From NCBI GenBank assembly GCA_036874045.1, contig CM072345.1, positions 5,791,501 through 5,855,500 of the forward strand: a DNA stretch of 64,000 bases, in the 5' to 3' direction. The position numbers were made by a program, and so were the translations under genes. The DNA comes from Cymodocea nodosa (Eukaryota > Streptophyta > Magnoliopsida > Alismatales > Cymodoceaceae). Numbering within the stretch: position 1 is the stretch's first letter; each line of letters opens with the position of its first letter. This document shows positions 14,121 through 64,000 of this stretch, in pieces. The notes under the pieces were generated by a model. That model saw nothing but the letters and a program-made list of their open reading frames with translations, did not search any database and was not told the origin of the DNA.

Positions 14121-14132
14121 TGGTATCAGAGC
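14121..14132 (+). other. Primer-binding site of B1
   Basis: TGGTATCAGAGC, two bases after the LTR; matches plant initiator tRNA-Met. Confidence 0.95.
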
Positions 14133-14169
14133 TTGGTTAATCCGTTATAAGATTTAACCATTTGGATTT

Positions 14170-15720: not shown

Positions 15721-15728
15721 AATTGTAG
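15695..15728 (+). other. B1 gag-pol spacer bounded by GT and TAG
   Basis: 34 bases between gag TGG and pol GAT, starting GTACCA and ending TTGTAG. The pol frame is shifted relative to gag. Removing exactly these bases would put pol in frame with gag, as it would in A1. Confidence 0.5.
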
Positions 15729-25513: not shown

Positions 25514-25599
25514 TAGGTGTATTTATTTCCTAGTATTTTTGAAGTTCTTTTGTAGAGAAAGATCTTGACTTTAATCTTTTCTGTGGCTAATGTGTAATA

Positions 25600-31820: not shown

Positions 31821-33621
31821 CATTTTGATTTTTATAACTAGAGTTTTATATGTGTTCCATTAAGCTCTCCATTAATTTACAATTAACTCAACGGACTTAG
31901 TTCATAGAGTTATAGTTAATTCAATGGACTATCCTTGTGGACATACAGTTAACTCCACTAGCCTACCTAATAACTTCAAATTAAATTCTACTATTCACAA
32001 AGGAATTTAACCATTCATTGGGTAGTTCCACAAAATCTAAATAACATCAATTAAGTTTTTTAATGTTAGTTAAGCTGAGATTTATCATTAATCAACACTA
32101 ACATTCAGATATTTCGAACAATAACCATTAAGATTTTTGGGTATTCTGTACGAATCAATTTTAGTAATCAATAAAATTATTTTCTATTTTCTAAATCAAA
32201 TAAATACGAAACATTCACAATACTAACAATGATAACATTATTCACGATACAAAACAAACAATACAACACATAAATACTAACTATAAATACAAATGATTAG
32301 TTTTTTGGTATTTTTGTTTTGATATGTTCCTAAAATGAATGAAAGGTGAAATGTAAAAATTCTCTATTGACAGTAAGAACTTCCATCACTACATGCGATG
32401 TGATTACACCACTAAAAACTTAATCACTTATAGTCATGCCTCTTCTCCATATAGAATCGCGAACCGAGACTTGTAAGTTGATCTCCTCTTCAGTATATTG
32501 GCATTAACCTGAAACCAAGGCCAGAAGTTTTATGATCTCCTAAGATATGAGTTGGTACTTGGTGAAAATGACTTCCCTTCCTACGATGTGATCACTCCTC
32601 ACAGTGGTTGTAAATCACCATCTTTAGCTCAAAATCGACCTGACATCCAGAAAGTATCCTCACAAACCTTCGATGGTTGGTGATTGTGGTGGTGTTGTGG
32701 AGTTTTAGGGAACTTCCAATGCTTCCTATAGTTAGCGTGATTCTCCACCTTCATACCCTTTCTTCATTTTTTTGCTCTTCTTTTATATTTCTTTCAATAG
32801 TAACTACTTCTACTTAAATGATCGGTTGGATTTCCTTCATTCATATCAACGATGATGATTTCTTCTTCATTCCATGAGTTAATTCCTGCATGATACGTGC
32901 AATCGTGGTTTTCCTTCGAATTTCCTATTTTTGCAACTGCTAATAGTGGCATATTAGAAAATAACTGGTCCATGGAGTTAGTGTAACTCAACAGACTTAT
33001 TTCGTTGATTTAACTATAAAACACGTGCAATAACGAAATAACTTATAAGCTTATAATACTAACACAACATGTTACCTTAGTGTGTTATCAAATAACTCAA
33101 TGCGTATAGTTATGCTACTTAACGAGTTAAATATGTGCAACTCACATGACATAATAAAACATTTAAATTCAACACATGCATAATTCTAACTTTATGATGG
33201 TAAAAAGACTTTTTGGATAGTTACGAACTGTAACTATCTGAAACTTATATGTATTTTGAATAATTACACTTAACATACCGAAAATCTACTTAAGTCAAGT
33301 TTCCAGGTCATGACACATGTCCTTCTTGAAATAATAAAATACTCTTTAAGTGTTCGAAACATAACTGTCTAGTATATGAAATGTTACTCTCCGAAATAAC
33401 AAACATTTTGGATACTTATGAATTAAAATAACCTATAACTCACTAACAATTCACAAATAAACTTAATTAACACTAATTTATTGGAATTAGGTGGATTCTT
33501 TCATTAAGGCATATAATCATGCAATTATAACATAATGGCTTAATTCTCACATGATAAGCTAAATATTATGCAATTAACCATTATTTAACCATTAATATTA
33601 TGCACTTTTTCATTCTAAACA
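31820..33621 (-). repeat. LTR C, truncated (3' LTR of element C3)
   Basis: Starts TGTTTAG at 33621 and runs about 1.8 kb on the minus strand. It matches 63956 down to about 61850 but is more diverged. The last about 250 bp of the LTR is missing where it meets E integrase. Confidence 0.8.
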
Positions 33622-35006: not shown

Positions 35007-35015
35007 CCTCCCCCC
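35007..35015 (-). other. Polypurine tract of C3
   Basis: Minus-strand GGGGGGAGG following TTGAGAACAATGCAAAATGTAG-like context, the same as in C1 at 58727. This context is typical of Athila/Tat-type gypsy elements. Confidence 0.75.
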
Positions 35016-35509
35016 ATTTCTACATTTTGCATTGTTCTCAATGTAAAACATTTATAGTAAATGTTAGCAGGCATGAATAATGTTTCGTTGACTTAGCACC
35101 TAACTCAACGAACTTAGTTTGTTGAGTTAATGAATAACACTATGAACTGTGCATGAATATAAATTCAAGATAAGTAATTTTTCACATACCTTGTTCTTTT
35201 GTATCTCCATTAATATCTTTTGACTTTTGATTCTAAAAAACTTTTCATTCACAAATAAAAGCAAAATTTATAACAACAAAACATAAATTGTTAAATATGT
35301 GCCTTGTGTGGAACCCAAGCTCTTACACCTTCGGTGGCTCACAAGCAAGTTAGTTGGTTTCTCAAAATAGATACCAACAAATTAGATTGATATTTTGTTT
35401 TTCTTTTCTTTTTCTTGTAAGATAAATAAATAAGAAACTAAATTTTTTTCTTTTTCTTTCTAAAAATAAATCCAGAGTACACACAACATTAAAAATACAA
35501 AATCATAAT
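35016..35509 (-). other. C3 F-box downstream region
   Basis: No gene. It keeps the same block as C1 downstream of its F-box gene (CTTGTGTGGAACC...GGTGGCTCACAAGCAAG, 35301-35350), so the F-box 3' context is shared by both elements. Confidence 0.6.
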
Positions 35510-36649
35510 TTAAGAGCATGACTGAAAAGTAGTGACAAATGGAATAAACGTGTCAGTCCAAGCAAAACTTTTAGGCATAGTTCTTCTTGCTATTAATTCT
35601 GTTTTAATGTAATCTACTTTTCTTTTTAATTTATATACTTGCAATATGTTATCAACACTAAATACTAGTGTATTACCATTAATAAATTGAAATGTAGAAA
35701 GGGATCCTTTTTTGTTCCAAGATAATGTAGTTGTTTCTATTTCTACATATATTTCAATATATTCCTCTTCCCATTTCCATTCATTTAAATCTTTCATAAT
35801 CCATATTTGAAATTTCCTCAGTTCATCCCACCATCTTACTAGACATAAAGTAGGATCATCAAATTCATTATACCATACTCCTAATTGAATTTTATCATGT
35901 TTTGCAGATGGTGGTTTAGCTATCTCATTAGATATAGGTAATATTTCTATAAAGTCGTCATCATAACTATCTATGCTTACTATGTATAAATTAGATCTAA
36001 ATGCAACTCATATATCCATGACTAGATATATATAACCATCAAGTATGACATGTATATTGTTAACTAATGCTTTCTCTCCTAGATATATCATAATATTTTC
36101 ATTCTAAGATCTATTTAGAAAATTATACACACTTAAACATAGATCTTCATCCTAATTTCCAATTGATCTCTAGTAATATAATTTTTCAAGAATAGTCAAA
36201 TTTGTATTAGAAAATGTTAAAGTTGACCCACAATTTTCAGTTGGTACTTCAAACCTATTAGGTCTTCCTATATTCCATTCTTCTCTAGTAATAGGATTTC
36301 TAATCAAAATATCAGGTAACAGAATAGCATACCTTGGTTTGGTTTTGTAAATAATCAATCCTTCATCTATCCTCATAATATGATCTATTCCTTCTAATGT
36401 ATTGGGTGGAATTCCAGTAGTTTCTTCTATGTTCATATATTCATGACTGATTGAACTACGATTAAATGACTTCCATAAAAATCTATTTCTAATATTAGTC
36501 ATCTTTGTAGCTTGTAGTCCATGAAAATACTTTTCTCTAACACATTCTTTAATTTGTCATAACACACAACACAATCTACATAGATCTTTAACTGATAAGT
36601 TACTTAGTACTTTTCTTAGTGAATCTAGTGATAATTCCATCAATTCCAT
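35510..36649 (-). pseudogene. F-box protein gene carried by C3, broken by stops
   Basis: Reading from ATG 36649 on the minus strand gives 380 codons in one frame to the stop at 35510. This equals codons 10-389 of the C1 gene. The F-box (MELSLDSLRKVLSNLSVKDLCRLCCV) is followed by a stop, and further stops lie after KLYY and before NENIM. Indels against C1 are codon-sized: one codon fewer in YAILLPD and one more in YDDDFIE. No frameshift. Clear matches to the C1 protein run to the last residues (ARRTMPKSFAW, TFQSCS). An intact version would act as an SCF ubiquitin-ligase substrate receptor via SKP1; that is known of the family and not shown here. Confidence 0.85.
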
Positions 36650-36799
36650 CTGTTGTGATTCTATATTTCAACATAAATAAAATTTAAACAGAGATAAAAT
36701 TAACATAGCTACTTATATATATATCTTCTTGGAGTTAGGTCATAACTTAACGGACTAAGTTCATTGAGTTAAGTAATAACTCTACAGTACTACTAACTA

Positions 36800-37778
36800 T
36801 AATTAAACTTTCATTTTTTTTTATGTTTTCTCTTCTTCTTTTTTTATATTTTTCTATTTACTATATTATACATACTTGTTAATAATTGTGCTGCTTCATT
36901 TTGCTTCCCTCTCATAGGAGGTATCAATTTCATTAACAGTTCTATTCAAAGGGTTAGGTACTGCTTATATTGGTAGTCCTCCCATAGGTCTAACTTCTAT
37001 TGATTCCTTCTATCTAGGAGGTATATTTCTATTCATATTTTGATTTTAAATGGCAACATTACCAAATACATGATCTAGACGATTGTTCAATTCTTGAATT
37101 ATCTTTTCTAATTTCTCTATTCTAGATCCTTATTCAATTAATGCTTCATAACTTATGTTTTTGTCATTTATATTTTCTCCTCCTTGGAAATTGTTATTTC
37201 TCCAAGATAAATTCGGGTGATTTCTCTAATTAGGGATATAAGAATTTCCAAAGTTATCTTTTTGGTTTCTAGCATAAATAATATCTAAGTCATTAATATT
37301 TGCATTCTTTTCTGCTAGTTTTTGATTTAATGATAATTCTTCTATTTTCTTTGTTAACTCAGTTAATTTAACTTCAAGCATAGTATTCGAATCTATTTCA
37401 TGTATTTCCCTTGGTAATATTTTCTTATCTGTAATAGCTTCAGCTTAGTTTTCCTACTGAGTAGTTCTTTTTGCAAAGTTTTCTAAATATGCTCATGCTT
37501 CTTCACTACACAATTTCAAAAATCCTTTCTAACAAGTAGATTCTAATAAAGATTTAGTTGAAACATCTATGCCTTCATAAATTATACCTATTAATTATGC
37601 TTTACTCATTGCATGATGTGGACATTGAGTCATTAAATCTTTAAATCGTTCAAAATATTTCTAGAATGATTCTCCTTGTTTTTCCTTTTTCTTTTTAATC
37701 GTTTGATGTGTTGGATAATATTTTTCCAAAAAAATAGGGCAAAATTCAGTCCATGCAAAAATTGAATCAAGCGATGCT
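36800..37778 (-). pseudogene. gag: C3 gag, Athila type, degraded
   Basis: Minus strand from 37778: FCPIFLEKYYPTHQT, then a stretch matching the Athila gag core (ERFKDLMTQCPHHAM), then LCSEEA-AYLENFAKRT, a coiled coil (TELTKKIEELSLNQKLAEK), NSYIPN-RNHPNLSWRNNNF, and EKIIQELNNRLDHVFGNVAI. RNHPNLSW is an Athila gag signature. Stops are frequent, mostly at positions where the family has Trp or Gln. The N-terminus is missing: the sequence is cut at 37778 by a plus-strand LTR C. It lies in the same orientation as the F-box gene. Confidence 0.82.
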
Positions 37779-42124: not shown

Positions 42125-42879
42125 ATGGTGTTACTGAACGGAACAGAACGGCTCTGAACTTTGCTATTCTAAGTTCTAAATGATTTCTATAGATTATACC
42201 CCCAAATCCTAAGTTTTAGTCTAAATAAACCCTAAGATTTTGGCGGGTAATCAGGTCATTTCCCGCGTAATCTACCGCTACTAACACATATTACTCCGTG
42301 GAGTTACAGTTAACTCCATAGACTAAATCTGTGGACTTACCTTAAATACTCCGTTGAGTTAACTGTAACTCAATGGAGTAAATTCATTAACTTATCCTAG
42401 ACTCCACGATGTAAGTTCATTGAGTTAAGCTTAACTCAATGGACTTTCTATAAAGTTATATCTAATAAAAATAATTATAATAATAATTTTCATTCCATCA
42501 AGATCGAAGAATTTCTGATATGACCAACTCTTGATTTTTCTCTTTTCTTAACTTCGGTCAGATCGTTGTATATCCTCGGTCGAACTAAAATTACAAAATA
42601 TACTTTTTTTTGACACTCAATTGAACCGATATATATTTCGGTCAAACCGATACTTTACTTAATATAAAAATTTTTCTTTTTCTTCTCTCTTTTTTTCTTA
42701 GTTTCGATCAAACCAATGGATCCTTTTAGTGTGACCGTTACAACATTTTTCTTTTAATTTCCTGCTTCGGTAGAATCGATGATTTCTTTCAATTAGACTA
42801 GTTCTATATTAAAAATAATAGTTATATATATACATATTTTTTAATATATATATTTTTACTTAATAAGACTCGAGTAGTC
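42125..42879 (-). other. Non-coding segment upstream of Athila extra ORF
   Basis: No gene. 42290-42460 repeats CTCCGTGGAGTTA / AACTCAATGGA-type boxes on both strands, like those in LTR C. 42520-42800 repeats TCGGTCRAACCGAT-like elements (42556, 42584, 42640, 42710). This may be a U3-like promoter stretch. Confidence 0.5.
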
Positions 42880-44233
42880 CTCCACTCTTACTTCTTCTAT
42901 AATTCCAAAGGAACATCTTGGAAATTTCAAAATAGGTCTAAGTCTTTGTCCATTTACTTTAAATATATTCTAATTTTTAGGATTTTTAATCTCAATAGCT
43001 CCATAGGAATAAATATTTCAAATTATGTAAGGTCCTGCCCATCTAGATTTTAATTTTCCTAGATTGTTATAAAGTCTAGTCATGTAAAAATATACTTCTT
43101 GTCCTATTTCAAAAGATTTTGGAATAATTTTCTTGTCATGCTAAAACTTCATTTTCTCTTTTTCTATTATAGTTTTCGAATAAGCTTCATTCCTAAATTC
43201 TTCTAACTCAATTAATTGTATCTTTCTATTTTTAGTAGTTTGATTTTAATTAGTGTTTAGAGTTTTTAATGCCCAATAAGCTTTATGTTCAATTTTAGCT
43301 TGTAAATGGCAACTTTTCCCATATACTATCCTAAAAGGTGACATACCTAGGCTTGTTTTATAAGCAGTTCTATAAGCCCAAAGTACATCTATTAGTCTAT
43401 TAGCCCAATCTTTTCTAGTAGGATTTACTACTTTTTCTAAGATTAGCTTAATTTATTTATTTGCACTTTCTACTTGTCCACTTGTTTGTAGATGATATGA
43501 TGTTGCTATTTTGTGATTTACTCCATATTTCTTCATTAAGGCTTCAAAACTTCTATTATAGAAATGAGTTCCTCTATCATTAATAATAGCTTTAGGTATT
43601 CTAAATCTAGCAATTATATTAGTTCTTATAAAATGTATTACACTTTGTTGTCATTAGTTTTTGTAGGAATAGCTTCTATCCATTTAGATACATAATTCAC
43701 CCCCAATAATATATAATTAAATTGCTTAGACGTAGGAAATGGACTCATAAAATCTATTCCTCATACATTAAAGATTTCAACCTCAACATAGGATTCAGAG
43801 GCATCATATTCTTCTTTGATATCCTTCCTATTTGTTAACATCTCAAACAACTTAAGCAATATTTATGAGCATCTTTTAATAGTCTTAGCCAGTAAAATCC
43901 ACATTGCAAAATTTTGGCAGTAGTTTTCCCTAAAATACATGCTCGGTCATGGTAGAAAGACAATGTGCTTTGATATTCAATTTCTAAAACACACCTCCTT
44001 AAAACTAGATCAGGACATTTTTTAAATAAGTATGGGTCTTCCTAATAGTAATATTTCACTCTTGAAAAGAACAATTTCTTATCCTATCTATTCCAATATT
44101 TAGGTGTTAAACTTGTAACTAAGTAATTAACTATGTCTACATACCAAGGCATTCTGTTTATAATCATTAATTGTTCATCACGAAAATTATCCTTAATTTC
44201 AATGTTTGATTTTTCTATTTGTAACATTGATAA
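42880..44233 (-). pseudogene. pol: Athila-type integrase
   Basis: On the minus strand: start of integrase (WYADIVNYLVTS), then CGFYWLRLLKDAHKYCLSC (zinc domain), then the core with IINDRGTHFYNRSFEALM (second catalytic Asp) and TSGQVESANK (catalytic Glu). The C-terminal region is LGKLKSRWAGPY...IEIKNPKN and FKVNGQRLRP. These are the standard Athila integrase blocks in order. Stops and small shifts are present. RNase H of the same element lies across the B2 insertion at 52506-52705. Confidence 0.88.
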
Positions 44234-45707
44234 TGTTAGGACCCTAGTATTTTGATAATGCAAAAACCTATGTCAGGAAACAAATTGTACTTCATATATA
44301 AGATAGTTTAGCAAAAAATCAGAAGGTAGATAAACAGATACAAGTAGTCCAGAAATTGTTGCTATAAAGCTACAAGAAAATCGGATAGTTACTAGGCTCA
44401 AGTATCCGAAGAGTAAGTTTAAAGTAGCAGCAACACCATCGGATAGTTAGAAGAATAACTATCCAAAAATACAAGACCTTCGAAGAGTTGTGAAAGATAG
44501 ATGGTTGAATGATTAGAGAGTTAGAAAGCTAACTATCTGAAAAACAAGAAGTTTCGAAAGGTTACAGATTTAACTATTCGAAACTTAAGTCATTTGTTTA
44601 CCCACGTGCAAAAATCTAGACAAAAGCTTAAAGGGATTTTTCGGAGAGTTAGAAAGTTAACTATCCGAAAAAGAAGAAGTTTCAGAAGGTTACAGATTTA
44701 ACTATCCAAAAACTTAAGTCATCCTATTATGCACATGCAAAAATAAGAAGACAGCAGTCAGAAGCTTAAAAGAAGAAAATCAGAGAGTTACTGTAGCTAA
44801 CTATTCGATAGTCAAGAACATTTCAATGAGTTACAATTACAAGTATCCGAACTTAAGACACGTCATATGTATGACTTAAATCTCACATAACAAAAGGACT
44901 TAAGTGGATTTTCAGTGAGTTACAAACATCCTTCGAAAAGTTACATAGCTACCGAAAGTCTAAGAAAATCGGAAGGTTATCTTGAAACACCTTTCTAAAT
45001 GGTAACTTACCATATTTAGACCTACAAACTCAACAAGTATAGTAGAATAAATCCGTTGAAGAGAAAATATGATCGTTGGACTTACAAGCATAAATACAAA
45101 AAAATCATTCAATATTTAGTAGAGCTAACAAGTGAGATTACATATACAATCATATATAGAAATATAGTATATACAGTAGATCAACTACTGTTACAAAAGA
45201 ATGCTCAATCTAGATTAACTACAACAAGGAATCGATTGAAAGCTGGATTTACAAGAAGATTCTCAAAGCTCTCTAAGTGCTGAAAGACTGATCCAAGAAG
45301 GATCATTTGGTTTGTGGCTTCTACCTTAAAGCTTCACTCAAGTTGTTGGTTTGAGTTTCGACCTGAAAACTCAAGAGGTTGGTTTTCTAAAGTTTATACT
45401 TGAAAACTTCTAAGTGTTGGTTTTTTGAAGTTTATACCTGAAAACTTTTGAGTGTTGGTTCTTGCTTCGACCCGAAAGTAAGTGTTGAAACACTTAGTAA
45501 AGCCCAAGTGATCCTTGGGGGTGGACTAGCCAAGTTGGTGAACCACCTAAAATTCCCTTGTGTTTCTTACTTTTATTTCCACTTTGTATGTTTTTAGTAC
45601 TTGAGTAAACTGTTTATTTAAAATTGGTTAATTAAATAAAAAATAGTTTTAAATATACTTTGTTCTCCATTCACCCCCCCCTCTAGTGAAGTCATACGTT
45701 CCTAACA
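44234..45707 (+). repeat. 5' LTR of B2
   Basis: 1,474 bp, TGTTAGG...CTAACA. CGGA-AGTTA stem-loop units and CACGTG (44602 region) in U3. The open stretch 45056-45283 is LTR sequence. Confidence 0.92.
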
Positions 45708-51004: not shown

Positions 51005-52505
51005 TGTTAGAACCCTAGTATTTTGATAATGCAAAAACCTGTGTAAGAAAACAAATTATATTTCACAAATAAGACAGTTTAGCAAAAGATCAGAAGGTAG
51101 ATAAATAGATACAAGTAGTTTAGAAATTGCAGCTATAAAGCTACAAGAAAATCGGATAGTTACCAGGCTTAAGTATCCAAAAGAAAGTTAATCTTTGGTA
51201 AGTTACAGGCTCAAGTATTCGAAGAGTAAGTTTAAAGTAGTAGCAACACCATCGGATTAGAAGAATAACTATCCGAAAATACAAGGCCTTTGGAGAGTTG
51301 TGAAAGATAGATGGTTGAATGATCGGAAAGTTAGAAAGCTAACTATTCGAAAAACAAGAAGTTTCGGAAGGTTATAGATTTAACTATCCGAAACTTAAGT
51401 CATTCGATTACCCACATACAGAAATCTAGACAAAAGCTTAAAGGGATTAGAAAGTTAGAAAGTTTTTAGAAGAGTTAGAAAGTTAACTATCCAAAAAAGA
51501 AGAAGTTTCAGAAGGTTACAGATTTAACTATCCGAAAACTTAAGTCATCCTACTATGCACGTGCAGAAATAAGAAGACAACAGTCGAAAGCTTAAAAGAA
51601 GAAAATCGGAGAGTTACTATAACTAATTATCCGATAGTTAAGAACATTTCAGTGAGTTACAGTTACAAGTATTCGAACTTAAGACACGTCACGTGTATGA
51701 CTTAAATCTCACATGACAAAAGGACTTAAGTGGATTTTCGATGAGTTACAAACATCCTTCGGAAAGTTACATAGCTAACTATCCGAAAGTCTAAGAAAAT
51801 TAGATGGTTATCTTGAAACACCTTTCCAAACAGTAACTTACCATATTTAGACTTGCAAACTCAACAAGTATAGTAGAATAAATCCGTTGAAGAGAAAATA
51901 TGATCGTTGGACTTACAAGCATAAATACAAATAGATCATTCAATATTCAGTAGAGCTAACAAGTGAGATTACATATACAATCATATATCGAAATATAGTA
52001 TAGACTGTAGATTAACTACTGTTACAGAAGAATGCTCAATCTAGATTAACTACAACAAGGAATCAATTGAAAGCTGGATTTACAAGAAGATTCTCAAAGC
52101 TCTCCAAGTGTTGAAAGGCTGATCCAAGAAGGATCATTTGATTCATGGCTTCTACCTTAAAGCTTCACTCAAGTTGTTGGTTTGAGTTTCGACCTGAACA
52201 CTCAAGAGGTTGGTTTTCTAAAGTTTATACCTGAAAAATTCTAAGTGTTGGTTCTTGCTTCAACCTGAAAGTAAGTGTTGAAATACTTAGTGAAGCCCAA
52301 GTGATCCTTGGGGGTGGACTAGTCGAGTTGGTGAACCACCTAAAATTCCATTATGTTTCTTACTTTTATTTCGGCTATGCATGTTTTTAGTACTTGAGTA
52401 AACTATTTATTTAAAATTGGTTAATTAAATCAAAAATAGTTTTAAATATACTTTGTTCTCCATTCACCCCCCCCCCCCCTTTGGTGAAGCCATACGTTCC
52501 TAATA
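51005..52505 (+). repeat. 3' LTR of B2
   Basis: 1,501 bp, TGTTAG...CCTAATA (terminal CA mutated to TA), followed by target duplicate GATAA. A run of 12 C lies near its end (52467-52479). Confidence 0.92.
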
Positions 52506-52705
52506 GATAAATGGTTTGCTACTACATTTTCACATCTGTTTTTATTTTTAATTTCTAGATCAAATTCTTGCAATAATAATATCCACCAGATCAGTCTAGA
52601 TTTAGTCTCTTTCTTTCCTATTAGGTGTTTTAAAGTTGAATGATCCGTGTATACTATCACTTTAGCTCCTATCAGATATGATCTAAACTTTTTTAAGGCA
52701 AACAT
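52506..52705 (-). pseudogene. pol: Athila-type RNase H fragment
   Basis: Minus strand: [53 protein letters not shown] and ENVVANHLS, the gypsy RNase H end. It is continuous across B2 with the integrase at 44233. Its N-terminal side is cut by LTR B3 at 52706. Confidence 0.88.
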
Positions 52706-53372
52706 TGTTAGGACCCTTGTATTTTGATAATGCAAAAAACCTGTGTGAGAAAATAAATTGTATTTCACATATTAGATAGTTTAGCAAAAGAGCATAAGAC
52801 AGATAAGTCATTATAAACAGTTCAGAATGTGTTGTAAGAGATAAATAGGATATTGAAAGGTTACGAAGCTTAACTATCTGGAAGAGATAATTTTTCAGTG
52901 AGTTACCAGGCTTAAGTATCCGACGAGTTAGTGTTAAGCAGCAATATCACCATAGGACGGTTAGAAAATTAACTATTCGAAAATACAAGGCCTTTGGAGA
53001 GTTTTAAAGATAGTTGGTTGAATGATTGGAGAGTTAATGCACTAACTATCTGGAAGTTTAAGGAAACCAGAAAGTTAGGAATGCTAACTATCCGAAACTT
53101 AAGTCATTAAATTTCCCACGTGTAGAAATTTAGAACAGAAGCTTAAAAGAATTTTTCGAAGAGTTAGAAAGCTAACTATCCGAAAAACAAGAGATTTCGG
53201 AAGGTAACAAAATTAACTATCTGAAACTTAAGTCATCTTATTGTGCATGTGTAGAATTAAGAAAGCAATCGGAAGCTTAGAAGAAGAATTTAGAGGATAT
53301 TGTAGCTAACTATCTAAAAGTTGAAGAGTTTCAGTGAGTTAACAGTTATAACCATCCGAACTTAAGACACCT
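52706..53372 (+). repeat. LTR B3, left part
   Basis: Starts TGTTAGG at 52706 (left flank AACAT) and runs in family-B U3 sequence to the CACCT target at 53368-53372. It continues at 55724. Confidence 0.88.
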
Positions 53373-55723
53373 TGTTTGGATTTTCCCAACTCTACACTAG
53401 AAAAACTTGGATTTGTTACTTCTGTTTTTACTTAGTTAATTTATCTTTATGCCTATTCTCTCTTTTAGAAGTAAACAAACAACCTTTAATACAATTTAGA
53501 TATTAATTCCAATTTGTACTTTAACTACAAGTGCACAGTGTATATTGTATCAGTGTGCAAGTACAGGTCGATCCCATAGGGAATTGCTGATGAATTTGAG
53601 AACTGTTTGCTTGTTAAAAATCAAATTTATATATTCAATAAGCTCTCCATTGAATTATAGTTAACTTAACAGACTAAGTTCGTTGAGTTATGGCTAACTC
53701 AACGGACTAACCTCATGGACTTAAGTTAACTCCACGAGCCTGTCTTTTCTTTTTAATACTGCTATTTACAAAGGAATTCGGCCAACCATTGGGCGATTCC
53801 ATAGATTGTAAATAACATCAATTAAGCTCTTTAATGTTAGTTAACATTGGATTTATCATTAAGCAATACTCACATTCAGATAATTCAAACAGTAACCATT
53901 AAAATCTTTAAGTCTTTTGAACGAACCAATTTCAGTAAACTGTAAAACTAAAATAAACATAAAACAATCACAACATTGACAAAGATAACATTAATCATGA
54001 TATAACACTCAAATACAACATACAAACATAGATAAAAATTTTTTGGTATTTTTGTTTTAATATGAACATGGAAATGGGCGAAAGGTGAAATGTAAAGTAA
54101 TCTCACTTGACAGTAAATACTTCCGACACTACTTGCAACGCGATTACACCACTGAAAATTAAACCACTTACAATTCTGTCTCCTCTCCCTAAAGAATCGC
54201 GAGTCCAGAATTGCAAGATGATCTCCTCTTCAGCATACAAGCATCAACCCGAAGCCAAGGCTAAAAGCTTTACGATCTCCTGAAATATGAGTCGGCGCTT
54301 GGTGAAAATGGCTTCCCTTCCCATAATGCGATCACTCCTCACAGTGGTTGTCAAGCATTGTGTTTGGCTCGGAATCGACTCGACATCAAGCAAGTATCCT
54401 CACAAACCTCCGATGGTTGGTGATTATGGTGGTGATGATGATGGTTGGTGAGGTACTTTAGAGAATTGCGACGCTCATCCTCCTCTACACACACTGTCCG
54501 TCCATCGATCACACATGCACACTTTCTTCTATTTTCCTTCCTTTCTTTTATATTTCTTCAGTAGTAACTGCTTCTACTTGAATGATCGGTTGGATTTCCT
54601 TCATTCATATCAACGACGATGCTTTCTTCTCCTACGCGATACGTGCAAACGTGGTTTTTCCTTCCAACTGTCCTATTTCTACAAACGCTACAGTGGCATA
54701 TTAGAAAATAAATAGTCTGTGGAGTTACAGATAATTCAACAAACTTTCTTCGTTAATTTAACTATAAAACACATGCAATAAAGAAATAAGCCGCTAACAT
54801 AATGCATTACCTTAATGTGTATTCATGTAACTCAACGCATACAATTATGCTAACTTAACGAGTTAAACATGTGCATCTCACGTGATATACTAAAGCATTT
54901 AAATTCAACACGTGCATAAATTTAAGTATCCGATGCTCAGGTGCATTGCATTTCGGATACTTATAAACTTAACTATCTGATGCTTAGATGCATTTCGGAT
55001 AGTTACAAATAACTCACCGATATATAACTTAAGTAAATCTACTAGATCTCGACACGTGTCAGCAGCAGTTTAATCATAAAATAACATTTCGGAGAGTTAC
55101 ATGTCTAACTATCCGATGTTCAGATGCATTTCAGATAGTTACAGCTAACTCACCGAAAATCCACTTAAGTCAATTTCCTAGAACATGACACGTGTCCTCA
55201 GCTATTTTATAAATAAAAAGAGATTTCGGAAAGTTACAGGGATAACTATCCGATGCCCAACTGCAATTTCGGATAGTTATAGATAACTCACCGAAAGTTC
55301 ACTTAAGTCATTCATTATGGTTTCGACACGTGTACTTCAGGAAATAATAAAATATTCTCTCAAAACATAACTGTTCGGCAATTTAAACATAACTATTCGA
55401 TACATGTTCGGTCTGTTAAACATAACTGTTCGAATATGTTCGGTATGTTAAACATAATTGTCTGAATATGTTTGGTATGTTAAACATAATTGTCTGAAAT
55501 ATCAGAAAATTCGGCTACTTAAGAATTTCACAGCCTGCAACTTACAGACAGTTCATAAATGTACTAAATTAACATTAATTCCCTCAAATTAAACAAATTC
55601 TTCAATTAAAGCATATAACAGTGTAATTATAACATAATGGCTTAATTCTTATATGATAAGCTAAATATTATGCAATTAACCATCATTTAACCGTTAATAA
55701 TTTGCACTTTTTCATTCTAAACA
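53373..55723 (-). mobile_element. Solo LTR C (C2) inserted in LTR B3
   Basis: 2,351 bp with ends TGTTTGG and CTAAACA on the plus strand and exact CACCT duplications (53368-53372, 55724-55728). Near identical to 61593-63956. On the minus strand the LTR begins at 55723. Open stretches such as 54515-54715 are in the LTR. Confidence 0.93.
54850..55530 (-). promoter_or_regulatory. U3 module array of LTR C
   Basis: Three units of about 136-138 bp. Each has two stem-loop motifs (CGGATAGTTA/TAACTATCCGA type), CACTTAAGT and a GACACGTGTC palindrome (55051-55060, 55187-55196; GACACGTGTA at 55325-55334). Then come about four 31-bp repeats around GTTCGGTATGTTAAACATAA (55380-55500). 54735-54925 is the block shared with LTR A. 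ABA/G-box response is only suggested by the ACACGTGTC core. Confidence 0.6.
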
Positions 55724-56028
55724 CACCTCACATGCATGACTTAAAATTTCACGTGACAGACAAAAGGACTTAAGTGGATTTTTGGTGAGTTATGGCTATT
55801 CTTCAGAGAGTTACATAGATAACTATTCGAAAATCAAAGGGAATCAGAAGGTTACAAGTTGGACAATATATAGAACGATAACTTACAATTTTTGGGACTA
55901 GCTACACAGTAAGTACAGTAGAAAACATCAATTAGAAGGGAATATGATCGTTATACCTTTTGGTATAAATATGAGAAGGGAAGTTTAAAAAAAGATTATC
56001 ATATATTGTGAGCTACTCAAAAATTCTG
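55724..56028 (+). repeat. LTR B3, right part
   Basis: Resumes family-B LTR after the solo LTR, including TATA region GGTATAAATATGAG (55964-55977). It stops at GTGAGCTAC (about 56017) where unrelated sequence joins. Confidence 0.85.
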
Positions 56029-56953
56029 AACGAGGTTAGTTCGTGGATTAAGCAGAACAGTTATTCTTTTAACCTCGAACGAAACTTCGTCGGTTTAACG
56101 GTTACCAAAATCTGAAAATAGTAGTAGTACACGTACCCATAAAAACAGGAACCACGATGCATGTTGCAAGCCACGTTCTTGCAACGAGATTTATTCACTT
56201 TATGGATGTGCAGTATATATATAAAACAAAATGTTATTTACGAGTTACCAGCACTTTTAAAAGAAAGGAGAATGCATTGGAGGAACTGGAATGAGAAGCA
56301 GCTGATCCAACTTCATCCGACAACAACTATTTATTGAATGGAAAGCTTCAGACTGAATCGACAAATGGAATTGATGCAATTACCATTGGATGCACTAAGG
56401 GAAGTACTAAGTAACTTGTCAGCTAAAGATCTGTGTAGGCTGTGTTGTGTATCAAAGGAAATTAAAGACTATATTGAAGAAAAATATTTTCAGGGACTAC
56501 AAGCTGCAAAAATGACTAAGATTAGAGATGGATTCATATGGAGGTCATTTAATCGTAGTTCAAATACCCAAGAATATCTGGCTATGGAAGAAACTACTGG
56601 AATTCCACCCAATGCATTAGAAGGAATAAATCATATTATGGGGATAGATGAAGAATTAATCATATACAAGACGAGACCAAGGTATGCAAGTTTATTATTA
56701 CCTGATATTTTGATAAGAAATCCTATAATAGGAGAAGAATGGAATATAGGAAGACCTAATAGATTTGAAGCACCAACTATAAATTGTGGGTCAACTTTAA
56801 TATTTTCTGATAAAAATTCTGCAATTCCTGAAAAATTATATTATTGGAGACCTACAGAAAATTGGGGTGAAGAGTTACACTTAAGTGTGTATAATTTTCT
56901 TAACAGATCTTAGAATGAAAATATTATGATATATCTAGGACAAGAATCATTAA
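56029..56953 (+). pseudogene. Inverted partial copy of the F-box gene with its upstream region
   Basis: 56029-56337 is the upstream region and 56338-56913 codes 191 residues from ATG to a TAG at 56911 where C1 has TGG. Homology stops at 56953 after GAATCATTAA. The protein differs from C1 at about 8 of 191 positions and keeps the whole F-box. It lies in reverse orientation to 59751-60678, so the two form a 925-bp inverted repeat about 2.8 kb apart. The F-box-associated half is absent. Confidence 0.9.
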
Positions 56954-57021: not shown

Positions 57022-57412
57022 TACTTCAGGAAATAATAAAATATTCTCTCAAAGCATAACTGTTCGGCAATTTAAACATAACTATTCGATACATGTTCGG
57101 TCTGTTAAACATAACTGTCCGAATATGTTCGGTATGTTAAACATAATTGTCCGAATATGTTCAGTATGTTAAACATAATTGTCCAAAATATCAGAAAATT
57201 CGGATACTTAAGAATTTCACAGCCTGCAACTTACTGACAGTTCATAAATGTACTAAATTAACATTAATTCCCTCAAATTAAACAAATTCTTCAATTAAAG
57301 CATATAACAATGCAATTATAACACAATGGCTTAATTCTTATATGATAAGCTAAATATTATGCAATTAACCATCATTTAACCATTAATAATATGCACTTTT
57401 TCATTCTAAACA
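57022..57412 (-). repeat. 3' LTR of C1, truncated
   Basis: Minus-strand LTR start TGTTTAG at 57412; matches 55723-55334 and 63956-63567. It contains the 31-bp GTTCGG repeats. Confidence 0.88.
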
Positions 57413-58726
57413 CTTCCCCCATACCTAAATTTTGCTAGTCCCTTAGCAAACTAAGATCTAATTAATTGGTCTTTAAAAGTGCTAGAATTAATTCTTCCCC
57501 TTTTGTTTTTCTTCTGTTTAGCATAAAAATATATTCTGTATGTTTCAGTAATCAACCTGCAAATATACTTAGAATATATGTAAATTACATACAAAGTATA
57601 TCATCATCATATAGGTGTTAATTATATTATCGTTTGTTCTTCTTTTCATCATCTGTCATCCTGAATTTTCCAATAAAATTTCTAGAAGAAATTTCAACAA
57701 CATACGAATCAAAGTACAATCCAATTCAATTCGATTAAGACAAGTAGAATAAAGAATTGTATCTCCATTAAACAACTTCAAAAGTCAATTCCAGATTCAT
57801 ATTTCAGCAATTCTAGATAACAGAAAATATATTCGATTCATAAGATATCTGTATTTCACAAAACACTTGTATCTTTTCAGAACAGTATATGTATATATAT
57901 ATATATATTTATACTTTAAAAGTTAATTTGACAAGCTTGAATCATACAAGAGCTTTCTAATGTACCCATGTAACGAGCTTTCAGTCAACAATCCCAGATC
58001 TGATTAGGATCTTAGGTTGCCAGATTTTAAGAGTCATTTTTCAAGTCAACAATCCTTACATACCTATCTGCTCAAGTACAAAAGGCTTGTGATCAAACAA
58101 GTCAATAAACTCTCAAAATTTTCCCTTTTTTTTTCTTTTTGTTGTTTTTTTTTACAACATAACTACAAACACAAAACAAAACATTAATCACATACTATAT
58201 ATGTATGTATTTCATTAATACATATGCAGTAAAACACCAATCTCATATAGTTCTGCTTCTATCATTTACTGAAGATATGAATCCATCTCAATAAGCTCAT
58301 ACTTTTCTGTAGTTTAATAAGATCTACACATAAATCATTCTACAAGTTCAATTAGTCAAATTAAATGTATCTTTAATCATATGTGTTTCATTTAATCTAG
58401 AATTCACATCTCAGCTCTTTCAGGACTTCAGATAATTTACTGATTTTTCATTAAGCATTCTGATTTCATTTTAAAATCGTGAAACTGTTAAACTCATGAA
58501 ATTCAAAAAAACATAAGATACTATATCTAGATTTGCATAACTAGTAAATTCAATAGCATCTTATATAGCCTTCTAAATATAACATTCAAGCAGTTTATAA
58601 AAATTTTACAGTCTCATTTATCGGATAGTTACATCAAGTTCATAAAAATTTTCAATTTCCTCAAAACTTTGCAGTACTATTTTAATTTCTTTAATTAACA
58701 AACTTACATGGCTGTTACTTCAATTA
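57413..58726 (-). other. C1 spacer between two polypurine tracts
   Basis: Non-coding. Next to the LTR lies minus-strand GGTATGGGGGAAG preceded by AGGGACTAGCAAAA, a classic pre-LTR context of plant gypsy elements. 57600-58440 is homologous to A1 5750-6450. Confidence 0.7.
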
Positions 58727-58737
58727 CCTCCCCCCCC
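58727..58737 (-). other. Internal polypurine tract of C1
   Basis: Minus-strand GGGGGGGGAGG preceded by TTGAGGACAATGCAAAATGTAG-like context. About 1.3 kb upstream of the LTR-adjacent tract. Confidence 0.75.
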
Positions 58738-59199
58738 ATACCTACATTTTGCATTGTCCTCAATGTAAAAGATTTGACAATAAGTACAGTAATTGTAGCA
58801 GGCATGAATACAGTTTTGGTTGATTTAAAATTCAAGATGAGTAATTAGTTACATACCTTGTTTCATTTGTATCTCGTTCTGCATATTCTAATTTTTGATT
58901 CTGAAAAACTTTTCATTCACAGATAAAAGCAAAATATAAAACAAAATAACATTTAACAGATATTAATAAATCAGTGTCTTGTGTGGAACCTAGGCTCCTA
59001 TGCCTTTGGTGGCTCACAAGCAAGCCAGTTGGTTTCCCAAAGCAGATACCAACAAACTGGATTGATATTTTGTTTTGTTTGTTTTTAATTTGTTTGTTTT
59101 TTTATAAAATGAATTTGAAAATTTCAAAATTCTTTTTTTAAAAATAAATAAATAAATAAATGCAGAATACACACAACATTAAACACACAAAATCACAGC
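58738..59199 (-). other. C1 F-box 3' region
   Basis: No gene. Holds the GTGTGGAACCTAGG...GGTGGCTCACAAGCAAG block shared with C3 (58980-59030) and an AAATAAATAAATAAATAAAT run near 59143-59162. Confidence 0.55.
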
Positions 59200-60366
59200 T
59201 TAAGAACATAATTGAAAAGTAGAAACAAATGGAATAAATGTATCAATCCAAGCAAACTTTTTGGGCATAGTTCTTCTTGCTATTAATTCTGTTTTAATGT
59301 AGTTCTTGTTCCTTCTTAATTTGTAAACATGTAATATATTATAAATTCCAAATACGAGTGTATTACCATTAATGATATGTAATGCAGAAAGGGATCCTTT
59401 TTTGTTCCAAGGTAATGTAGCAGTTTCTATTTCTACATCTATTTCAATATACTCCTCTTCCCACTTCCATTCATTCATGTCTTCCATAATCCATATTTGA
59501 AATTTCATCAGTTCATCCCACCATCTTATCAGACATAAAGTAGGATCATCTTCTTCATTATACCACATTCCTATTTGAATTTCATTAAATTCTGCAGATG
59601 GTGGTTTAGCTATTTCACTCGGTACAGGTAAAATTTCTATATATTCATCATAACTGTGTATGCTCACTATGTATAAATCAGATCTATATGCTATTGATAT
59701 CTCTGTGACTAAATATATATATCCATCAAGTATGATATGTGTTTGGTTAATTAATGATTCTTGTCCTAGATATATCATAATATTTTCATTCCAAGATCTA
59801 TTCAGAAAATTATACACACTTAAGTGTAACTCTTCACCCCAATTTTCTGTAGGTCTCCAATAATATAATTTTTCAGGAATTGCAGAATTTTTATCAGAAA
59901 ATATTGAAGCTGACCCACAATTTATAGTTGGTGCTTCAAATCTATTAGGTCTTCCTATATTCCATTCTTCTCCTGTTATAGGATTTCTTATCAAAATATC
60001 AGGTAATAATAAACTTGCATACCTTGGTCTCGTCTTGTATATGATTAATCCTTCATCTATCCCTATAATATGATTTATTCCTTCTAATGCATTGGGTGGA
60101 ATTCCAGTAGTTTCTTCCATAGCCAGATATTCATGGGTATTTGAACAACGATTAAATGACCTCCATATGAATCCATCTCTAATCTTAGTCATTTTTGCAG
60201 CTTGTAGTCCCTGAAAATATTTTTCTTCAATATAGTCTTTAATTTCCTTTGATACACAACACAGCCTGCATAGATCTTTAGTTGACAAGTTACTTAGTAC
60301 TTCCCTTAGTGCATCCAATGGTAATTGCATCAATTCCATTTGTCGATTCAGTCTGAAGCTTTCCAT
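59200..60366 (-). CDS. F-box protein with F-box-associated-like C-terminus, carried by element C1
   Basis: An intact 388-codon, apparently intronless ORF. The F-box lies at residues about 13-46 (MQLPLDALREVLSNLS, KDLCRLCCVSKEIKDYI), with the LP..L..VL..L pattern that binds SKP1. Residues about 100-340 look like an F-box-associated beta-rich domain (ILIRNPITGEEWNIG, LHLSVYNFLNRSW, IVSIHSYDEYIEILP, PTLCLIRWWDELMKFQIWIM). Family members are substrate receptors of SCF ubiquitin ligases; the target here is unknown. ATG 60366 is followed by Met at codons 10 and 13. C3's copy starts at the codon-10 Met, so the true start may be there. Upstream is a TATA-bearing region; downstream is the element's PPT. 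Same strand as gag and LTRs. No signal peptide or membrane segment. Confidence 0.88.
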   Translation of the reverse strand: MESFRLNRQMELMQLPLDALREVLSNLSTKDLCRLCCVSKEIKDYIEEKYFQGLQAAKMTKIRDGFIWRSFNRCSNTHEYLAMEETTGIPPNALEGINHIIGIDEGLIIYKTRPRYASLLLPDILIRNPITGEEWNIGRPNRFEAPTINCGSASIFSDKNSAIPEKLYYWRPTENWGEELHLSVYNFLNRSWNENIMIYLGQESLINQTHIILDGYIYLVTEISIAYRSDLYIVSIHSYDEYIEILPVPSEIAKPPSAEFNEIQIGMWYNEEDDPTLCLIRWWDELMKFQIWIMEDMNEWKWEEEYIEIDVEIETATLPWNKKGSLSALHIINGNTLVFGIYNILHVYKLRRNKNYIKTELIARRTMPKKFAWIDTFIPFVSTFQLCS

Positions 60367-60678
60367 TCAATAAATAGTTGTTGTCGGATGAAGTTGGATC
60401 AGCTGGTTCTCATTCCAGTTCCTCCAACGCATTCTCCTTTTGTTTTAAAAGTGTTGGTAACTCGTAAATAACATTCTGTTTTATATATATACTACACATC
60501 CATAAAGTGAATAAATCTCGTTGCAAGAAAACGTGGCTTGCAACATGCATCGTGGTTCCTGTTTTTATGGGTACGTGTACTACTACTAATTTCAGATTTT
60601 GGTAACCGCTAAACCAATGAAGTTTCGTTCGAGGTTAAAAGAATAACTGTTCTGCTTAATCCACGAACTAACCTCGTT
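60367..60678 (-). promoter_or_regulatory. Putative promoter of the F-box gene
   Basis: Minus strand: TATATATATAAAA (60490-60478) about 112 bases before the ATG, ACGTAC/CACGT boxes near 60570, and a TTGCAAGCCACG...GCAACGAGATTTATTCAC stretch. It is copied at 56029-56337. Promoter function is inferred from TATA position. Confidence 0.5.
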
Positions 60679-60715
60679 GAGTTACAGAAAACTCAACAGA
60701 ATACGAACTAACCTC
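60663..60715. repeat. 13-bp direct repeat at the gag/F-box junction
   Basis: ACGAACTAACCTC at 60663-60675 and 60703-60715, 40 bases apart, bracketing an inverted repeat TTGAGTTACAGAAAACTCAA. It marks the joint between gag and the captured segment. Confidence 0.7.
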
Positions 60716-61536
60716 TTATCCACCTTCATATCATTTTCATTTTGAGTTCTTGGTGGTATATCAGTTCCAGATCTTAATGTTACACCTACATCTTCCAGAT
60801 TTTCGTTACTTTCATGATGTTTCTGTATATCATTTTCGTGATTATGATCTTCAATTGTTTTTAGTTTTAAAGTGCATTCTTTAAATTCTCTTGCATTGGT
60901 ATTTTCTGTTTGATGTATATTTTGCAAATTATGTAGGTTTATAACATTATAATTTTCATTGTCTTGTTGCATAACTTGTATTTTCATTGCATTTTCGTCT
61001 AATGCTTTTAATTTTCTTTCCAGATCATCTAATTTCATTGCATTCAATTTTTGATCAATTTTCATTATGTTTTTTTCAGTTTCGTAAATTATATCCTTTT
61101 TAGGTTCTGAATATGCTTCCTTATAGTTTAATTGGTTGACTTCTTGTTGTTGACACATAAAGTATTCCAGTTTGTCCAGATTTTGCTCTATACTATGCTC
61201 TAGTCTGCCATAGCTATCCCAAACTTCAGTGTCTCTCATCATATTACACATTCTATATTGACCATCAGTTGGGTAAACTATAGGATTCTCATACTCGGCT
61301 CTATTATATTGAGGATAATTTATTTGTTGTTCATGCGATCTAACCATCTGCAAATGTCTCAATTTCAAACAATCAGAAATGTCATGTCCTTCAGAATTGC
61401 AGAATTCACATATGCAAATTACAGGTTTTAGAAATCTTTGAGCATAAGCATATGCCATATTCTCAATTACAAAAGAAAACACACAACTCTGGCTATTAAA
61501 ACGAAACAACTCTAACAGTTGCTTATATCTATTCAA
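60682..61536 (-). CDS. gag: C1 gag fragment, Athila-like, with zinc knuckle
   Basis: 284 residues open. A CCHC knuckle CEFCNSEGHDISDC lies near residues 43-56, followed by a Gln-rich stretch, coiled-coil segments (IDQKLNAMKLDDLERKLKAL) and GVTLRSGTDIPPR, which matches the Athila gag LRSG motif. A better start may be the Met of MAYAYAQRF at 61458. The last about 10 codons (after KVDK) read into the F-box promoter region and are not gag. Likely truncated: the rest of gag and all of pol are missing. It would bind RNA if made. It lies 50 bases after the PBS, as expected for a gag leader. Confidence 0.75.
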   Translation of the reverse strand: MNRYKQLLELFRFNSQSCVFSFVIENMAYAYAQRFLKPVICICEFCNSEGHDISDCLKLRHLQMVRSHEQQINYPQYNRAEYENPIVYPTDGQYRMCNMMRDTEVWDSYGRLEHSIEQNLDKLEYFMCQQQEVNQLNYKEAYSEPKKDIIYETEKNIMKIDQKLNAMKLDDLERKLKALDENAMKIQVMQQDNENYNVINLHNLQNIHQTENTNAREFKECTLKLKTIEDHNHENDIQKHHESNENLEDVGVTLRSGTDIPPRTQNENDMKVDKRLVRILLSFL

Positions 61537-61570
61537 TTCAATTCAATTCAGTTCATTTCAATTCAATTCC

Positions 61571-61585
61571 CTGACAACGGCGCCA
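61571..61585 (-). other. Primer-binding site of C1
   Basis: Minus-strand TGGCGCCGTTGTCAG, seven bases inside the 5' LTR. The TGGCGCCGTTG core is the usual PBS of plant Athila/Tat-type gypsy elements. Confidence 0.9.
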
Positions 61586-61592
61586 TAAAACT

Positions 61593-63956
61593 TGTTTGGA
61601 TTTTTCCAGCTCTACACTAGAAAAACTTGGATTTATTACTTCTGTTTTTACTTAGTTAATTTATCTTTATGCCTATTCTCTCTTTTAGAAGTAAACAAAC
61701 AACCTTTAATACAATTTAGATATTAATTCCAATTTGTACTTTAACTGCAAGTGCATAGTGTCTATTGTATCAGTGTGCAAGTACAGGTCGATCCCATGGG
61801 AAATTGCTGATGAACTTGAGAACTGTTTGCTTGTTAAAAATCAAATTTATATATTCAATAAGCTCTCTGTTGAATTACAGTTAACTCAACGGACTAAGTT
61901 CGTTGAGTTATGGCTAACTCAACGGACTAACCTCATGGACTTAAGTTAACTCCACGAGCCTTTCTTTTCTTTTTAATACTGCTATTTACAAAGGAATTCA
62001 GCCAACCATTGGGCGATTCCATAGATTGTAAATAACATCAATTAAGCTCTTTAATGTTAGTTAACATTGGATTTATCATTAAGCAATACTAATATTCAGA
62101 TAATTCAAACAGTAACCATTAAAATCTTTAAGTCTTTTGAACGAACCAATTTCAGTAAATTGTAAAACTAAAATAAACATAAAACAATCACAACACTGAC
62201 AAAGATAACATTAATCACGATACAACACAAACAATACAACACTCAAATACAACATACAAACATAGATAAATTATTTTTGGTATTTTTGTTTTAATATGAA
62301 CATGGAAATGGGCGAAAGGTGAAATGTAAAGTAATCTCACTTGACAGTAAATACTTCCGACACTACTTGCAACGTGATTACACCACTGAAAATTAAACCA
62401 CTTACAATTCTGTCTCCTCTCCCTATAGAATCGCGAGTCCAAAATTGCAAGATGATCTCCTCTTCAGCATACAAGCATCAACCCGAAGCCAAGGCTAAAA
62501 GCTTTACGATCTCTAGAAATATGAGTCGGCGCTTGGTGAAAATAGCTTCCCTTCCTGCGACGCGATCACTCCTCACAATGGTTGTGAGGCACTATGTTGG
62601 CTCGGAATCGACCCGACATCAAGCAAGTATCCTCACAGACCTCCGATGGTTGGTGATTATGGTGGTGATGATGATGGTTGGTGTGGTACTTCAGAGAATT
62701 GCGACACTCATCCTCCTCTGCACACACTGTCCGTCCATCGATCACGCACGCACACTTTCTTCTTTTTTTCTTCTTTTTTTTTATATTTCTTCAATAGTAA
62801 CTACTTCTGCTTGAATGATCGGTTGGATTTCCTTCATTCATATCAACGGCGATGCTTTCTTCTCCTACGTGATATGTGCAAACGTGGTTTTTCCTTCCAA
62901 CTGTCCTGTTTCTGCAACCGCTATAGTGGCATATTAGAAAATAAATAGTCCGTGAAGTTATAGATAACTCAACGGACTTTCTTCGTTGATTTAACTATAA
63001 AACACATGCAATAAAGAAATAAGCCGCTAACATAACGTGTTACCTTAGTGTGTATTCATGTAACTCAACACATACATTTATGCTAACTTAACGAGTTAAA
63101 CATGTGCATCTCACGTGATATACTAAAGCATTTAAATTCAACACGTGCATAAATTTAAGTATCCGATGCTTAGGTGCATTGCATTTCGGATACTTATAAA
63201 CTTAACTATCCGATGCTCAGATGCATTTCGGATAGTTACAAATAACTCACCGGTATATAACTTAAGTAAATCTACTAGATCTCGACACGTGTCAGCAGCA
63301 GTTTAATCATAAAATAACATTTCGGAGAGTTACATGTCTAACTATCTGATGTTCAGATGCATTTCAGATAGTTACAGCTAACTCACCAAAAATCCACTTA
63401 AGTCAATTTCCCAGAACATGACACGTGTCCTCAGCTATTTTATAAATAAAAAGAGATTTCGAAAAGTTACAGAGATAACTATCCGATGCCCAACTGCAAT
63501 TTCGGATAGTTATAGATAACTCACCGAAAGTTCACTTAAGTCATTCATTATGGTTTTGACACGTGTACTTCAGGAAATAATAAAATATTCTCTCAAAACA
63601 TAACTGTTCGGCAATTTAAACATAACTATCCGATACATGTTCGGTCTGTTAAACATAACTGTCTAAATATGTTCGGTATGTTAAACATAATTGTCCGAAT
63701 ATGTTCGGTATGTTAAACATAATTGTCCGAAATATCAGAAAATTCGACTACTTAAGAATTTCATAGCCTACAACTTACCGACAGTTCATAAATGTACTAA
63801 ATTAACATTAATTCCCTCAAATTAAACAAATTCTTCAATTAAAGCATATAATAGTGTAATTATAACATAATGGCTTAATTCTTATATGATAAGCTAAATA
63901 TTATGCAATTAACCATCATTTAACCGTTAATAATTTGCACTTTTTCATTCTAAACA
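61593..63956 (-). repeat. 5' LTR of C1 (LTR family C)
   Basis: 2,364 bp, plus-strand ends TGTTTGG and CTAAACA. GACACGTGTC at 63284-63293 and 63420-63429, and GACACGTGTA at 63558-63567. Open stretches 62341-62948 lie in R/U5 and have no coding support. Confidence 0.93.
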
Positions 63957-64000
63957 CACCTCACGTGCATGACTTAAAATTTCACATGACACAGACAAAA
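63957..64000 (+). repeat. LTR B flank at right end
   Basis: CACCTCACGTGCATGACTTAAAAT-like sequence, the same family-B position as 55724 onward after the solo LTR. Truncated by the window end. Confidence 0.75.

What the first reader, a model, noticed from the sequence alone, without database searches (positions are those of the whole stretch)
57022..63956. Athila-like retrotransposon that carries an F-box gene in place of pol
Seen: on one strand, LTR C, an Athila-type PBS, gag with zinc knuckle and LRSG motif, an intact 388-codon F-box ORF, then PPT and LTR start. A second, diverged element (31820-37778) has the same gag / F-box / 3' block / PPT / spacer / LTR order. So the F-box gene is a shared component of an element family and not a chance host gene next to a repeat. 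Known: F-box proteins select targets for SCF ubiquitin ligases, and some plant virus silencing suppressors use an F-box. Inference: the element may use it against a host silencing factor, or it may be a captured passenger.
Basis: partly seen in the sequence, partly recalled or inferred. Interest (0 to 1): 0.88.

Follow-up and report, generated by a model that had tools for sequence, protein, structure and literature searches.

The report
Retrotransposon family carrying an F-box gene
A large family of plant jumping elements carries its own gene of the type that marks proteins for destruction, kept under selection for a long time and apparently made from a spliced RNA whose removed piece holds the element's own shell-protein gene.

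Summary
The window copy (57022-63956, minus strand) is a broken LTR element with an intact 388-codon F-box ORF. But the F-box is not "in place of pol". Copies with pol read: LTR, PBS, zinc-knuckle ORF, AP-RT-RH-INT, extra ORFs, leader with exon 1, capsid, F-box exon 2, 3' block, PPT, LTR. Of the ten integrase hits with the longest frames (of 150), eight have the F-box at the expected place, one was not covered, one lacks it. The F-box gene has two exons; its GT-AG intron contains the capsid gene, which in 84 of 84 related polyproteins lies N-terminal of pol. The window copy and four of eighteen fetched 8-kb loci are exact intron-loss copies; a tree rejects one clade (p-AU 0.0004). So the RNA was spliced and reverse transcribed repeatedly, unless recombination moved the intron. 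Deeply diverged F-box copies show dN/dS about 0.25, like capsid; neutral simulation gives about 0.75-0.8. The F-box is thus a resident accessory gene. Its target is unknown; counter-defence is inference.

The parts
61593..63956 (-). 5' LTR of element 1 (about 2.36 kb)
   Evidence: TGTTTAG...CCAAACA ends; 61591-64000 matches 53371-55765 (solo LTR and flank) at 95.1% over 2411 aligned bases
61570..61585 (-). primer binding site TGGCGCCGTTGTCAGG, 7 bases after the LTR
   Evidence: read; tRNA-Asp (Athila-type) assignment recalled
60682..61536 (-). zinc-knuckle / TLRSG ORF (nucleocapsid side of gag), cut by the pol deletion; no capsid domain found
   Evidence: CX2CX4HX4C seen in the translation; 90-93% identical to the start of the pol+ element L029; no Retrotrans_gag hit
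60367..60681 (-). leader in front of the F-box start codon; TATA-like run near 60478-60491 (read by eye); in pol+ copies it lies downstream of pol
60349..60366 (-). F-box exon 1 (ATGGAAAGCTTCAGACTG, MESFRL); in copies with the intron GTATGT follows here
59200..60366 (-). F-box ORF, 388 codons, exons 1 and 2 fused without the intron
57413..59199 (-). 3' block ending in the PPT (GGTATGGGGGAAG)
57022..57412 (-). start of the 3' LTR, truncated
   Evidence: 95.7% to 63566-63957
56026..56953 (+). inverted fragment: leader plus F-box codons 1-205, also without the intron
   Evidence: 97.1% to 60681-59751
53373..55723 (-). solo LTR of the same family with 5-bp target duplication CACCT (53368-53372, 55724-55728)
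31822..33621 (-). 3' LTR of element 2
35510..36665 (-). F-box exon 2 of element 2 (broken by stops) with splice acceptor TATAG|AATCAC
37209..37775 (-). capsid gene remnant of element 2, in the intron position
   Evidence: 84% protein identity to the capsid of L029
40002..42016 (-). extra ORF region of element 2 between pol and capsid
42827..44257 (-). RNase H / integrase part of pol of element 2
   Evidence: pol residues 800-1268, 76-88% identity to L029
52505..52705 (-). further pol piece of element 2, separated by about 8.2 kb of other sequence
   Evidence: pol residues 743-809, 82%; that the gap is a nested insertion is inferred

Best explanation
A high-copy, originally autonomous Athila-like Ty3/gypsy family has an F-box protein gene as a resident accessory gene between pol and the 3' LTR. 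Shown from sequence: the gene has two exons (MESFRL plus 382 codons) and its GT-AG intron contains the element's capsid gene. The window copy descends from a spliced RNA that was reverse transcribed; it lacks the capsid for that reason and lost pol by a separate deletion. Inferred: unspliced RNA makes capsid and spliced RNA makes the F-box protein, as retroviruses do with gag and env. Inferred, less certain: the protein acts as a substrate receptor of a host SCF ubiquitin ligase and removes a host factor that limits the element; silencing machinery is the first candidate.
For: Pol and F-box in one element: L029/L030 (1269-aa frame with RVT_1, RNase H, H2C2 and rve; F-box exon 2 without stops downstream); F-box present for 8 of the 10 longest-frame integrase hits of 150 (7 by sequence by coordinates); element 2 in the window. 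Intron: donor GTATGT in 11 of 11 copies read, acceptor AG in 16 of 19, exact junction in the window copy, L010, L020, L021 and L022. Repeated loss: well supported branches force at least 3 changes of state, one clade rejected with p-AU 0.0004. Capsid in the intron: Retrotrans_gag. Control: of nine other internal deletion junctions printed, eight do not fit GT-AG ends. Selection: F-box median dN/dS 0.248 over 70 pairs with dS above 0.6, capsid 0.215 over 39; neutral simulation medians 0.75-0.82, minima 0.45-0.57. F-box above Pfam cut-off in the window ORF, and matched in 9 of 9 intact copies scanned.
Against: No RNA or protein data. Pairs in the dN/dS test are not independent (and L008 and L028 are one place). 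Recombination between element RNAs could spread one intron loss or restore the intron. Young copies show dN/dS near 0.67, as expected for decaying copies. The capsid frame is open from its first ATG to the shared TGA in only 1 of 14 records covered over at least 390 of 396 codons, and 78 of 106 scored F-box copies have a stop. One of the nine deletion junctions (L023) does fit GT-AG, though it also lies in a 7-base repeat. The C-terminal half matches FBA_1 only weakly (4 of 9 members, best E 0.0083) and the fold model is unusable (pLDDT 44). One of the ten longest-frame integrase loci (L034) had an inverted LTR and no F-box in the stretch fetched.
Confidence: 0.72

Rival explanations
1. The F-box gene is a captured host gene carried as a passenger, without a role for the element.
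For: Capture of host genes by plant LTR elements is known (passages of PMC13317346 and PMC7264820); 78 of 106 scored copies have at least one stop.
Against: Present with the splice acceptor also in copies whose F-box is only about 55% identical; deep dN/dS nearly as low as for capsid.
Confidence: 0.15
2. One reading: a non-autonomous family in which the F-box replaced pol and which is mobilised in trans.
For: The window copy and several others lack all or part of pol.
Against: Pol-bearing copies carry the F-box; the pol deletions mostly differ from copy to copy.
Confidence: 0.05
3. The F-box gene serves the host (domesticated copies), and selection on host copies gives the low dN/dS.
For: Host F-box families are large and fast evolving (recalled).
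Against: The signal is spread over many dispersed copies inside elements, most with capsid beside them.
Confidence: 0.08
4. The intron-lacking arrangement is ancestral and the capsid-bearing stretch was inserted later.
For: Intron-lacking copies lie at several places of the tree, which insertion could also give.
Against: Diverged copies L002, L003, L006, L008/L028 and W2 (element 2 of the window) have capsid and acceptor in place; L001 lacks capsid but its LTR ends 0.4 kb away, so it is a deletion or unclear. The junction fits GT-AG exactly; repeated insertion at one base is unlikely.
Confidence: 0.04

Closest known systems
Athila / Calypso / Diaspora lineage of Ty3/gypsy elements (PMC1142308, passages read)
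   Same: Zinc finger, then protease, RT and integrase; PBS type and TLRSG motif (recalled); further ORF after pol, as in Athila and Calypso
   Different: In Diaspora the capsid core and the zinc finger are in one gag-pol ORF; here capsid lies downstream of pol in an intron, and an F-box gene follows
Extra ORFs of plant LTR elements (Retand, Grande; PMC11963269 and PMC7264820, passages read)
   Same: Accessory gene between pol and 3' LTR, kept in most copies
   Different: In Retand antisense and mostly of TRP28 type; 'F-box' occurs 0 times in either main text
Orchid Ty3/gypsy elements with an m6A demethylase domain (reference entry seen in PMC11963269)
   Same: Host-type functional domain acquired by a Ty3/gypsy element
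   Different: Different protein; paper itself not read
F-box silencing suppressors of plant viruses, P0 type (abstract starts in the listing)
   Same: F-box or F-box-like protein of a parasite; SKP1 link
   Different: No sequence comparison was made; target of the element's protein unknown
BARE element with distinct RNA pools for translation and replication (abstract start in the listing)
   Same: Separate RNAs of one element serve different ends
   Different: One ORF, no F-box gene mentioned in what I saw; paper not read

Membership tests
LTR retrotransposon, Ty3/gypsy type | LTRs, PBS, PPT, 5-bp target duplication | tested here: met
   (target duplication seen at the solo LTR)
LTR retrotransposon, Ty3/gypsy type | pol with RT, RNase H, then integrase | tested here: met
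   L029 1269-aa frame
Athila lineage | PBS for tRNA-Asp and TLRSG motif | tested here: inconclusive
   motifs seen; their assignment is recalled
Athila lineage | RT phylogeny | not tested
   only similarity to the 120 listed plant polyproteins, about 60% at best over near full length
Athila lineage | capsid at the N terminus of gag-pol | tested here: not met
   84 of 84 relatives with both parts have capsid first; here capsid lies about 3.8 kb downstream of integrase
F-box proteins | F-box domain above Pfam cut-off | tested here: met
   39.8 bits against 20.5; F-box matched in 9 of 9 members
F-box proteins | substrate-binding C-terminal domain of FBA type | tested here: inconclusive
   FBA_1 in 4 of 9, best E 0.0083
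F-box proteins | binding to SKP1 in an SCF ligase | not testable with these tools
   bench test needed
Non-autonomous, pol-less family | no pol in the family | tested here: not met
Transduced host gene | identifiable host paralogue outside elements | tested here: inconclusive
   none among the 25 loci sampled; protein searches found none, but they need shared 5-residue words and scored a part of the candidates

The most novel reading that the evidence does not exclude
A plant retroelement family uses a splice switch between its capsid gene and an F-box counter-defence gene: unspliced RNA gives capsid, spliced RNA gives an SCF substrate receptor that removes a host restriction or silencing factor, a retroelement counterpart of viral P0 proteins, with gag permuted so that capsid sits in the accessory gene's intron.
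Probability: 0.35. Interest if true: 0.92.

Novelty: new variant of a known kind. Interest (0 to 1): 0.75.

Why it matters
Many accessory genes of plant retroelements have no known role. Here one encodes a protein class with a clear biochemical function (choosing proteins for degradation), shows long-term purifying selection across many copies, and has defined splice sites, so a direct test of retroelement counter-defence in plants is possible. A capsid gene inside the intron of an accessory gene, downstream of pol, would also be an unusual retroelement layout. In practice, F-box gene counts of such genomes may be inflated by element copies.

Tried and rejected
Considered and rejected: host gene beside a repeat (24 of 25 sampled loci are element copies); F-box replacing pol; splicing as the general cause of the pol deletions (of nine junction classes printed, eight do not fit GT-AG; the one of L023 does, but it also lies in the 7-base repeat TGTTGAG, so it stays open; the deletion shared by L019, L020, L021 and L026 looks like common descent and was rechecked against undeleted relatives). 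Led nowhere: structure model of the F-box protein from one sequence (pLDDT 44, so no fold search was run); solved-structure search (only weak F-box matches, E about 0.5); protein searches for relatives of the F-box protein (none), while pol found 7790 of 7950 scored candidates, so plant proteins are in that database.

The numbers 7042 and 9537 are first-look candidates, not copy counts. A draft of this report said that capsid was open in two copies and that none of the deletions fitted GT-AG; one search corrected both.

Full report
What is in the window. On the minus strand, 57022-63956 holds a broken LTR element: 5' LTR 61593-63956, PBS 61570-61585, a zinc-knuckle/TLRSG ORF 60682-61536, a leader, an intact F-box ORF 59200-60366, a 3' block with PPT, and the first ~390 bp of the 3' LTR. 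The two LTR pieces differ at 17 of 392 positions, so the insertion is not very recent. The F-box scores 39.8 bits against a Pfam cut-off of 20.5.

The family. The F-box protein gave 7042 first-look candidates, of which 106 were scored; those listed are 90% identical or more, and 28 of 106 have no stop across the match. I read 25 distinct F-box loci out of 150 Pfam hits (8 top-scoring, 19 chosen mostly for long frames, two places repeated): 24 are copies of this element and one (L005/L018) is not. In 18 eight-kb member loci (L010-L017, L019-L028), capsid precedes the F-box in 14 and four lack it by exact intron loss; the 3' block runs directly into an LTR start in the same orientation in 13, L023 has a broken junction, L010 an inverted LTR, and L013, L014 and L028 show none within the stretch.

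Pol is part of the family. A search with an integrase piece gave 150 scored hits. The one with the longest frame (1269 aa, L029) contains RT, RNase H and integrase, preceded by LTR end, PBS position and the zinc-knuckle ORF without a capsid, and followed by extra ORFs, the leader, exon 1 and capsid; the next stretch, L030, has the acceptor, F-box exon 2 without stops, 3' block and LTR. For the ten hits with frames of 734 aa or more I looked for the F-box at the same distance: found in eight (seven by sequence; C12:8235665 by coordinates), not covered in one (L037 begins in the 3' block), absent in one (L034, inverted LTR). By coordinates alone, 7 F-box hits lie on the same strand 2-8 kb downstream of one of the 150 integrase hits, against 1 upstream within 8 kb and 1 on the other strand within 15 kb (two of the seven were known before). 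Eight of the 18 eight-kb loci also show pol pieces upstream. Inside the window, element 2 has the same order: pol pieces at 52505-52705 and 42827-44257, extra ORFs 40002-42016, capsid remnant, F-box, 3' block, LTR, with an inverted LTR and about 8.2 kb of other sequence in between.

The intron. In copies with capsid, the leader ends in ATGGAAAGCTTCAGACTG|GTATGTAATTAATC and the F-box resumes after ...TTTTACAG|AATCGACAAATGG. GTATGT stands in 11 of 11 donors read and AG in 16 of 19 acceptors (L001, L014 and L019 are mutated). The window copy, L010, L020, L021 and L022 have exactly the joined exons. In one search, 33 of 106 matches begin at residue 1, as intron-less copies do, and 73 at residues 4-7; this list favours the intron-less form because it is scored over the full query. 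On a tree of 28 exon-2 sequences the five intron-less copies need four changes, at least three forced by well supported branches, and one clade is rejected (p-AU 0.0004); L001 was left out of that tree. The tree alone cannot tell loss from regain. As a control, nine other internal deletion junctions were printed: eight do not fit GT-AG; the one of L023 does but also sits in a 7-base repeat.

Capsid placement. The intron holds a Retrotrans_gag ORF; the codon after it is TGA in 19 of 20 records (L008 and L028 are one place). The frame is open from its first ATG to that TGA in 1 of 14 records covered over at least 390 of 396 codons; the others have one to seven earlier stops, often at the same codons. 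Of 120 related plant polyproteins, 84 match both capsid and pol, and in all 84 capsid is N-terminal. So the layout here is permuted.

Selection. Pairwise dN/dS over 26 F-box records (L008 and L028 are one place) falls from a median of 0.67 at dS under 0.1 to 0.248 at dS above 0.6 (70 pairs, 0.185-0.36); capsid behaves alike (0.215, 39 pairs). Neutral simulation gives medians of 0.75-0.82 with a lowest single value of 0.45. Pairs are not independent. F-box dS is about twice capsid dS in the most diverged pairs; I cannot explain this (faster mutation, module exchange and synonymous constraint on capsid are open).

Mechanism. Shown from sequence: gene order, intron, capsid within it, intron loss at several places of the tree, long-term constraint. 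Inferred: unspliced RNA for capsid and spliced RNA for F-box; SCF receptor function; host target. The window copy is a derivative: spliced (so no capsid) and pol-deleted.

Literature. In PMC13317346, PMC11963269 and PMC7264820 (passages seen) the word F-box occurs 0 times in the main text. PMC12062965 (passages) concerns F-box genes that captured transposon domains in animals. PMC1142308 (passages) was looked up for other terms. The searches listed, by title and abstract start, no paper on such an element. This covers only the open-licence library searched.

Noticed in passing
53368-56027 and 63957-64000 with L009:1-367: A solo LTR with target duplication CACCT has the same right flank (to 56027, 95.6%) as element 1, ending where the inverted F-box fragment begins; looks like a duplication with rearrangement.
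   Followed up: partly
56026-56953: Inverted, intron-less leader plus F-box N-terminal half, 97% to element 1, next to the truncated LTR.
   Followed up: partly
L002, L008/L028 against L011-L026, F-box and capsid: Synonymous divergence of the F-box is about twice that of capsid in the same, most diverged locus pairs.
   Followed up: no
37899-39497: An LTR of the family in opposite orientation lies between the extra ORFs and capsid of element 2.
   Followed up: no
8433-9140 and 25533-26216: Further relatives (32-38% identity) of the extra ORFs that lie between pol and capsid in L029.
   Followed up: no
2560-5503, 14774-17942, 20547-21800, 46736-47287: ORFs that look to me like Copia-type gag and pol (label recalled); the flank of element 1 beyond the window (L009) is 86% identical to 13382-18424.
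   Followed up: no
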